This document shows, in pieces, positions 1 to 54,559 of a stretch of DNA of 64,000 bases. The stretch's first letter is position 1; each line of letters starts with the position of its first letter. A model generated the notes under the pieces. It was not told where the DNA came from, did not search any database, and worked only from the letters and a program-made list of their open reading frames with translations. This DNA is from Treponema bryantii (GTDB lineage: Bacteria > Spirochaetota > Spirochaetia > Treponematales > Treponemataceae), in NCBI GenBank assembly GCA_015061465.1, contig SUWN01000002.1:1-64000 (forward strand), in the 5' to 3' direction. Both the position numbers and the translations under genes were made by a program.

Positions 1-1
1 C

Positions 2-25
2 TTTATATGTTTAATTTAATCCTAC
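2..25 (-). repeat. Terminal repeat of a dispersed element (other end lies outside the window)
   Basis: TTTATATGTTTAATTTAATCCTAC, 24/24 identical to the reverse complement of 33327-33350; ends 3 nt before the stop codon of the DMT transporter. Confidence 0.7.
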
Positions 26-33326: not shown

Positions 33327-33895
33327 GTAGGATTAAATTAAACATATAAAGAAAAACATCGAGCGAAAAAGGCTCACGTGAATAACCGTACTTATGCTCC
33401 GCCGAGAGATAGCACGGACTTTTGAACATCGTATAACGTTAGAATGTCTTGTCCGTGCTTCCAGTTTTGTAGTTTCTACAAAACTGGTGGCGCAGCAAGA
33501 TAATTTCGCAATAAAAATGTGCAGCTGCGCCAACGAACATTCACTACGCCTTTTTCAGACAATTTTTTTATATGTTTACTTTATCGAATTTGCCCAAAAA
33601 TTTTAAAATAAACTTTACATATACAAACGTTCGTATTTTAGATATTTCCGCCCATTTTGATAAATTAAACAATTATAAATAATTTAAAAAAAAATAGATT
33701 TTGCGCGAAGGAACGTAGATAGGGGAAAAAACACTCTGCTTGTGGCAGCCACACTAGTGGCTGGTTTTATAGTTTCTATACCACAAGCAGCGTGTAGCGA
33801 GTTATCGAGCGGTTTTGAACCAAGCTACGTGACTGGGAGCAATTATAAATTGTTTTTATTAATTCTTTGATTTTATATGTTTATTTTATTCCTAC
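33327..33895. repeat. Composite structured non-coding element with 24-bp inverted ends (MITE-like)
   Basis: GTAGGATTAAATTAAACATATAAA (33327-33350) versus TTTATATGTTTATTTTATTCCTAC (33872-33895), 22/24 as inverted repeats; several perfect 9-12 bp stems inside. Confidence 0.7.
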
Positions 33896-53431: not shown

Positions 53432-54541
53432 TTAATTCATGACAGTCAAAGCTTCTTCTGCAAGAGACATTGGTTTGTATTTGCCAATCATCTTTTGTGC
53501 ATCAAAATCTTTTTTGTCGCTGAGCATTGCCCAAACGATTTCTGCCATCTTTCTTGCAGCGGCTACAATTGATTTACCGCTGCCTTTATTTGTTTTCATA
53601 TATTCATAACGCTGCATCATTCTCCAGTTTGAAGTATCTTTGCAACGACGAATTCCCAACACTAACTGTACAAAACAGGTTCTCAATTCCTGAGGGCCTC
53701 GTTTTGTAATCTTTCCATGATGAATGGTCTCGTTCGAATCCTGTACCCAGGGAACAAGCCCATAGAAGGCAGCATATTTCTTTGCACTTGCAAATCTTGA
53801 TATGTCTTCTGTATAAGCTCTGATTGTCCATGCCGTGATTTTTCCACAACCACGAATAGTCAGAAGCCGGTTTACCATCTCATCGTCTTTTGTCAGTTCA
53901 ACCAGCTGTTTTTCAATTATCTTTACGCTTTCTTCAATTCGTTCTATAATTTCAAACATCAGTTTTACTGATTGTGCTTCGAGCACGTAGTCGTTATTCG
54001 ACTCAAGGGTGTCCAGAATTCTCTGGCGCCCTTTTTTACTTTGCAGGCTTCTAAGCTCGTCAGAAAGTCCTAAACTCACCAGTAATGCATGAATCTCGTT
54101 CTTCTGACCGACAGTTGAACGTACAAGTCTTTCCCTTGATTTCAACAAACGTCTGATATTCTCTGTCTCTTTTCCACAAAGATAGCTTTCTGGAAGCATA
54201 TCCTTTGAAAGAAATTCTGAAATTGTTGAAGCATCATGCTTGTCTGTTTTCTTAGTTGATTCATTGATTACCTTGAACTTCAGTGTATTGATTACAGTTA
54301 CTTCTGCACCTGCTTTCTCAACCTGGTTCTTGAAGAACCTTGTATTCCCCGTAGATTCAACTCCAATTTTTACATCAGCACCAGTTGCTTTGTATCTGCT
54401 TATTCTCGCAAGAAACTCCGCATAGCCGTCTGTTGTTGTCGGATACTGTCTAATCTGATCCAGAGATTCAGATTCTTCTTCGGTACGCACATGAACAGTA
54501 AACTGTGTCTTGTGCAAATCAACGCCAATAAAAAATGTCAT
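53432..54541 (-). CDS. IS110-family transposase
   Basis: FFIGVDLHKTQFTVHV, GVESTGNTRFF, KKTDKHDASTISEFL, TIRGCGKITAWTI, GKITKRGPQELR. Confidence 0.95.
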   Translation of the reverse strand: MTFFIGVDLHKTQFTVHVRTEEESESLDQIRQYPTTTDGYAEFLARISRYKATGADVKIGVESTGNTRFFKNQVEKAGAEVTVINTLKFKVINESTKKTDKHDASTISEFLSKDMLPESYLCGKETENIRRLLKSRERLVRSTVGQKNEIHALLVSLGLSDELRSLQSKKGRQRILDTLESNNDYVLEAQSVKLMFEIIERIEESVKIIEKQLVELTKDDEMVNRLLTIRGCGKITAWTIRAYTEDISRFASAKKYAAFYGLVPWVQDSNETIHHGKITKRGPQELRTCFVQLVLGIRRCKDTSNWRMMQRYEYMKTNKGSGKSIVAAARKMAEIVWAMLSDKKDFDAQKMIGKYKPMSLAEEALTVMN

Positions 54542-54559
54542 GATGACCTCCGTCTGATT

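What the first reader, a model, noticed from the sequence alone, without database searches (positions are those of the whole stretch)
33327..33895. ~570-bp non-coding, heavily structured element with 24-bp inverted ends between hslV and a xer gene
The outer ends form an imperfect 24-bp inverted repeat (22/24). A third related end (TTTATATGTTTACTTTATC, 33567-33585) lies inside, suggesting two abutting or nested elements. The interior is a chain of perfect stems and no credible protein. This looks like a MITE-like or structured-RNA mobile family rather than ordinary intergenic DNA.
Basis: partly seen in the sequence, partly recalled or inferred. Interest (0 to 1): 0.7.

Follow-up and report, generated by a model that had tools for sequence, protein, structure and literature searches.

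The report
Mobile structured repeat with swappable hairpin caps
The stretch is one of about 25-30 copies of a small mobile DNA repeat in a gut-type Treponema, built from two inverted, RNA-like folded units that probably act as portable transcription stops; one of the folds recurs in more than half of 118 genomes sampled from the same genus and matches no RNA family in Rfam.

Summary
Window 33328-33894 is one copy of a dispersed, non-coding, inverted-repeat-bounded family (20 copies aligned, about 10 more partial or interrupted; mostly 505-569 bp). The ends TA[CG]GA[AT]TAAATTAAAC were found only in this genome among 196 of the genus, and the hslV-xerC junction lacks the element in relatives. 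It is a composite of two head-to-head units, A (minus strand) and B (plus strand). Each has an AT outer stem, a short conserved base and a bulky cap. Caps are exchanged wholesale between copies. Unit B's roughly 140-nt core is a genus-wide structured element: 63 of 118 sampled genomes have it, 34 of 42 base pairs show two-sided compensatory change, G-U far exceeds A-C, and nothing reaches an Rfam threshold. Elsewhere it occurs in two forms. One is a 215-bp MITE with other terminal repeats and 10-bp target duplications. The other is a terminator-like stem (A-tract/T-tract, pairing specific to each copy) at gene ends, at sites where relatives have ordinary intrinsic terminators or nothing. Best reading: a trans-mobilised MITE-like family carrying a conserved, probably terminator-acting RNA fold with interchangeable caps. 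Transposase and termination are inferred, not shown. An IS110-family element has repeatedly inserted at one site in unit B.

The parts
33328..33894 (.). Whole composite mobile element (567 bp), inserted between hslV and xerC
   Evidence: Alignment with 19 further copies
33328..33350 (+). Left terminal inverted repeat TAGGATTAAATTAAACATATAAA (TA may be the duplicated target dinucleotide)
33872..33894 (-). Right terminal inverted repeat (22/24 match to the left over 24 bp)
33328..33585 (-). Unit A; folds better on the minus strand (-93.5 vs -85.1 kcal/mol); base GGCG.AGTGAAT.../...ATTCACG.GAGCC with A-tract/T-tract
33402..33541 (-). Cap of unit A (long type, three hairpins; limits approximate); replaced by one of two unrelated shorter caps in 13 of 20 aligned copies
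   Evidence: related hairpins elsewhere in the genome
33567..33585 (-).
33586..33658 (.). AT-rich spacer between the two units; partly duplicated in two copies (L016, L019)
33659..33894 (+). Unit B; folds better on the plus strand (-64.2 vs -51.3 kcal/mol)
33697..33846 (+). Genus-wide conserved structured core of unit B: P0 stem, purine-rich internal loops, P1, three-way junction with P2 (bearing P3 and P4 hairpins) and P5
   Evidence: Covariance-model hit 158.9 bits, E 1e-40 (the window copy is one of the 15 seed sequences)
33728..33735 (+). Region of the core (CAAAA^ACACTC in other copies) at which an IS110-family element is inserted in other copies of this genome; the window copy is not interrupted

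Best explanation
The stretch is one copy of a non-autonomous, transposon-like repeat that a transposase supplied in trans has spread through this Treponema genome. It consists of two related structured units placed head to head and pointing outward. Each unit is a terminator-like structure: an AT outer stem, a short conserved GC/purine 'base' and a large interchangeable cap, followed by a T-rich stretch. On landing at AT-rich gene ends the element most likely acts as a two-way transcription terminator or insulator, unit A for leftward and unit B for rightward transcription. In the window it separates xerC from hslV. Shown: the repeat family, its ends, the element-free junctions in relatives, the two-unit architecture, cap exchange, and the conserved, covarying fold of unit B across the genus. 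Inferred: the transposase in trans, the termination activity, and that selection acts on the RNA form.
For: Family and ends. Ends found only in this genome among 196 of the genus. Element-free hslV-xerC junction in relatives. Fold: 27/42 compensating pairs in 15 sequences; 34/42 in 89 distinct sequences, 96.2% of cells paired versus 82.9% shuffled and 33-45% slid; G-U 168 versus A-C 33. Only own genus among 64 genera positive; 63/118 genomes in the genus. Mobility in a sister species: about 50 MITEs of 215 bp with TIR CAGGGCTTCCGCATTATAAA, 10-bp TSD matching in 9/20 versus 2.8% shuffled. Terminator form: A-tract/T-tract stem paired copy by copy (11.85 versus 7.36 +/- 0.45 shuffled), 19/40 between convergent genes, typically 3-50 nt after stop codons; orthologous sites carry an ordinary intrinsic terminator (G010, G012, G015) or nothing. 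Cap swap on a constant base: within the genome; G079 versus G004 at one orthologous site; a unit-A-like base with another cap in G004.
Against: No transposase with these ends was found (the genome is 83% complete and several contigs break inside the repeats). No target duplication beyond TA in this genome. The T-tract after unit B in the window copy is weak (TTGTTTTTATT). MITE-form copies in other species were never found between convergent genes and 18/29 are between divergent genes, where a terminator has no obvious use. The context calls rest on a crude ORF picker. Covariation was counted on an alignment fitted to the structure. No expression data.
Confidence: 0.6

Rival explanations
1. An ordinary MITE whose internal stems are incidental palindromes; the unit B fold is inherited baggage with no RNA-level function.
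For: Inverted ends, ORF-less, multi-copy; TSD-bearing relatives.
Against: 34 of 42 pairs compensate, with a strand-specific excess of G-U over A-C, and copies without TIRs keep the fold at orthologous sites of different species.
Confidence: 0.12
2. A cis-regulatory or trans-acting structured RNA (riboswitch-like leader or sRNA) spread as a module; the conserved loops bind a protein or ligand.
For: Large conserved three-way-junction fold with invariant positions; TIR copies often lie upstream of genes.
Against: Downstream genes look functionally unrelated; many copies sit between convergent genes.
Confidence: 0.15
3. A REP/BIME-type palindrome moved by a RAYT (Y1-type) transposase acting on single-stranded hairpins.
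For: Intergenic palindromes between convergent genes, and an IS110-family insertion at one fixed site, as known for REPs (PMC1525189).
Against: No Y1_Tnp (PF01797) in this genome or in 7 of 9 relatives searched, including several with many copies; units are much larger than REPs.
Confidence: 0.06
4. A folded single-stranded DNA recombination site (attC-like) recognised by a site-specific recombinase, which would explain the wholesale cap exchange.
For: Caps are exchanged cleanly between constant flanks; G-T pairs would also be tolerated in single-stranded DNA.
Against: TIR and TSD in G109 point to transposition by a DDE-type enzyme instead; no attC R-box architecture was recognised by eye; no recombinase linkage was tested.
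Confidence: 0.07

Closest known systems
MITEs (non-autonomous IS derivatives)
   Same: Inverted ends, small, ORF-less, high copy, intergenic; the sister-species form has TIRs and 10-bp target duplications.
   Different: No parental IS found; two inverted units; interior fold conserved across species that use different TIRs; caps exchanged.
REP/BIME palindromes of enterics and pseudomonads (PMC1525189, PMC12306157)
   Same: Intergenic, often between convergent genes, structured, targeted at one position by an IS110-family element.
   Different: 140-570 bp rather than a short palindrome; RAYT/Y1 transposase absent; three-way-junction fold with strong covariation.
Rho-independent (intrinsic) terminators
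   Same: A-tract, stem, T-tract; sits just after stop codons; occupies sites where relatives have ordinary terminators.
   Different: The stem carries a ~100-nt conserved or exchangeable cap, and the unit is dispersed and mobile.
REP-targeting IS110 elements such as IS621, with bridge RNA/seekRNA target choice (PMC11208160, PMC11187229)
   Same: An IS110-family element (Transposase_20 and DEDD domains on a full-length relative) is inserted at one fixed position of a dispersed palindromic repeat.
   Different: The target is the P1/P2 junction of unit B; the guide RNA was not identified here.

Membership tests
MITE | Terminal inverted repeats, short, no coding capacity, multiple dispersed copies | tested here: met
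MITE | Target-site duplication | tested here: inconclusive
   This genome: none beyond TA, flanks A-rich/T-rich. Sister-species form G109: 10-bp TSD in 9/20 versus 2.8% shuffled
MITE | Ends shared with an autonomous transposase-encoding element | tested here: not met
   In the own genome complete end pairs are 504-569 bp apart with no transposase inside; no such end in 195 other genomes of the genus; the one long G109 copy is read as a MITE split by an IS3/IS150-like element. The genome is incomplete, so a parent could be missing
REP/BIME (RAYT-driven) | Y1/RAYT transposase present | tested here: not met
   PF01797 absent from G000, G079, G040, G004, G172, G021, G093, G064; present in G109 and G010
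Known structured RNA family (Rfam 15) | Covariance-model match above the gathering score | tested here: not met
   No match above gathering score in the window region at relaxed E; none in 17 further loci
Intrinsic terminator | Stem followed by a T-tract, located at gene 3' ends | tested here: met
   Met for the TIR-less form in G079, G040, G004; only partly for the window copy (two terminator-like sites versus 0.3 expected)
Intrinsic terminator | Terminates transcription | not testable with these tools
   No expression data

The most novel reading that the evidence does not exclude
A genus-wide class of mobile, terminator-positioned RNA structures in Treponema in which a constant base carries interchangeable caps and the fold itself is needed for spread or for a host role (a protein-binding 3'-end element), independent of any one transposase family since different species use different terminal repeats.
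Probability: 0.25. Interest if true: 0.8.

Novelty: new variant of a known kind. Interest (0 to 1): 0.6.

Why it matters
It would be an RNA-structured mobile family not in Rfam that is abundant in gut and rumen treponemes, an example of mobile DNA serving as ready-made transcription stops, and a natural system showing modular exchange of caps on a constant base. It also gives a fresh case of IS110-family target choice at a conserved fold.

Tried and rejected
Rfam search of the region and of relatives' copies: nothing above threshold. Phage and plasmid collections: no match. Core and unit-A patterns in viral contigs: none; hits to the end motif there were single, one per listed contig, and taken as chance. 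RAYT/Y1 transposase: absent from most carriers. Riboswitch controlling one pathway: downstream genes look unrelated. Autonomous parent in G109: the 1657-bp copy is best read as a MITE split by an IS3-family element. Group II intron as the element interrupting unit B: dropped for IS110 family after the protein domains were identified on a full-length relative. Inverted-repeat excess in the flanks of this genome's copies: not above shuffled partners once A/T richness is allowed for. A strict motif scan for other caps in 396 kb of G004 found only one candidate; a looser scan for unit-A-like bases gave one good hit among chance-level ones. Literature searches found no description of this family (open-access papers only).

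Full report
What was checked. The window sequence shows the 22/24 inverted ends, the internal third end and a series of perfect stems. Searching the element against its own genome (2.06 Mb, 87 contigs, 83% complete) returned itself, 6 further near-full-length matches at 87-94% identity and many partial ones. The end motif TA[ACG]GA[AT]TAAATTAAAC, with up to one mismatch, occurs 50 times (42 exact) against 3 for the reversed control. Nineteen complete end pairs lie 504-569 bp apart and enclose no transposase. Exact limits in the window are 33328-33894.

Architecture. Aligning 20 copies shows a composite. Unit A (33328-33585) and unit B (33659-33894) each have their own inverted ends and are separated by an AT-rich spacer. 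Unit A folds better on the minus strand and unit B on the plus strand, so the units point outward. The two units share a base motif (GGCG.GAG.GA... / ...CGGGAGCC, judged by eye) but have different interiors. Interiors are exchanged wholesale: unit A has a long cap in 7 copies and two unrelated short caps in 13; unit B has an alternative cap arm in 2 copies (L020, L022). The flanks on either side of the exchanged part are nearly invariant. The long A cap resembles another hairpin repeat found elsewhere in the genome.

The insertion. In 11 relatives whose hslV start region could be aligned, the sequence beyond it does not contain the element; where xerC also aligned, the two genes lie 20 to roughly 110 bp apart. 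The ends of this genome's element are absent from 195 other genomes of the genus. Flanks of the copies are A-rich on the left and T-rich on the right, with TA at each end and no longer direct repeat. This would fit a TA-duplicating transposase but does not prove one. Relatives are too diverged for a base-exact empty site.

Unit B across the genus. Relatives carry the core of unit B (33697-33846) as single units. RNAalifold on 15 sequences gives 42 pairs, 27 with compensatory double changes. On 94 matches (89 distinct) from named Treponema and Spirochaetia records, 34 of 42 pairs have two-sided changes and 96.2% of cells pair, against 82.9% after shuffling and 33-45% when the partner strand is slid; that alignment was fitted to the model, which leans the count towards the structure. 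G-U pairs outnumber A-C 168 to 33, which picks out the given strand as the folded one. The model hits 63 of 118 genomes of the genus and no other genus among 64 sampled in the order. Rfam has nothing above threshold.

Two forms elsewhere. In G109 the core sits in about 50 MITEs of 215 bp with ends CAGGGCTTCCGCATTATAAA; 9 of 20 show a 10-bp target duplication matching at 8 or more positions against 2.8% in shuffled pairs. In G079, G040 and G004 most copies lack such ends. Instead they have an A-tract/T-tract stem whose two sides match copy by copy (11.85 paired bases versus 7.36 +/- 0.45 for shuffled partners). These lie typically 3-50 nt after stop codons, 19 of 40 between convergent genes and 4 between divergent ones. 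At orthologous places other species have an ordinary intrinsic terminator (G010, G012, G015) or almost no intergenic DNA (G002, G003, G010, G015). At one orthologous site the close relative G004 has the same base motif with a different cap, which repeats the cap exchange seen within the window genome. The TIR-bearing copies behave differently: of 29 with both neighbours called, 18 are between divergent genes and none between convergent ones. This is not explained by a terminator role and may reflect target choice.

IS110 link. In at least four copies of this genome an IS110-family element is inserted at the same position of unit B, CAAAA^ACACTC (two left junctions, four right junctions). The element's own gene is cut by contig ends, and its 58-residue remnant matched no Pfam model, but a full-length relative with 78% identity over that stretch carries the Transposase_20 and DEDD_Tnp_IS110 domains. 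IS110-family insertion at a fixed position in dispersed palindromes is known for REPs (PMC1525189), and IS110 target choice is guided by a bridge RNA (PMC11208160).

Interpretation. The mobile-repeat part is well supported. The structured fold of unit B is real by covariation. That the element stops transcription rests on position, sequence form and site replacement, and is an inference; the transposase is unknown. Weak points are the crude ORF-based context calls, a fragmented genome whose contigs often end inside the repeat, and the lack of expression data or of a close strain.

Noticed in passing
window 53432-54559 (minus): A complete IS110-family transposase gene (PF02371 and PF01548) with a long non-coding stretch upstream; a hairpin followed by a T-run (GACTGTTC...GAACAGTCTTTTTTTTT) lies just upstream of it.
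   Followed up: partly
L008, L024, L023, L025, L026, L027 (contigs C10, C66, C77, C2, C73, C24 of G000): A second, different IS110-family element inserted at the same site of unit B in at least four copies; contigs end inside it.
   Followed up: partly
window 1-25: The end of another copy of the element lies at the edge of the window's contig.
   Followed up: no
L298, L300, L301, L302 (contigs C58, C23, C63, C37 of G000): A separate dispersed family of hairpin clusters sharing CCAGTTTTGT..ACAAAACTGG and flanking GCGC-rich stems, which may be the source of unit A's long cap.
   Followed up: partly
L554 (G004:C1:261780-262100): At a site where G079 has the unit-B core, G004 has an unrelated inverted repeat (TAGCCACAGATCAACACAGATGGACACAGAT...ATCTGTGGCTA).
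   Followed up: no
L325 and L334 (G040, G004): The same convergent gene pair carries the core in opposite orientations in two species.
   Followed up: no
L285 (G109:C13:73567-75223): One G109 MITE appears to be split by an IS3-family IS150-like element.
   Followed up: partly
TIR-bearing copies: TIR-form copies are biased to divergent intergenic regions (18 of 29, none convergent); outward-facing TATAAT boxes lie in both terminal repeats.
   Followed up: no
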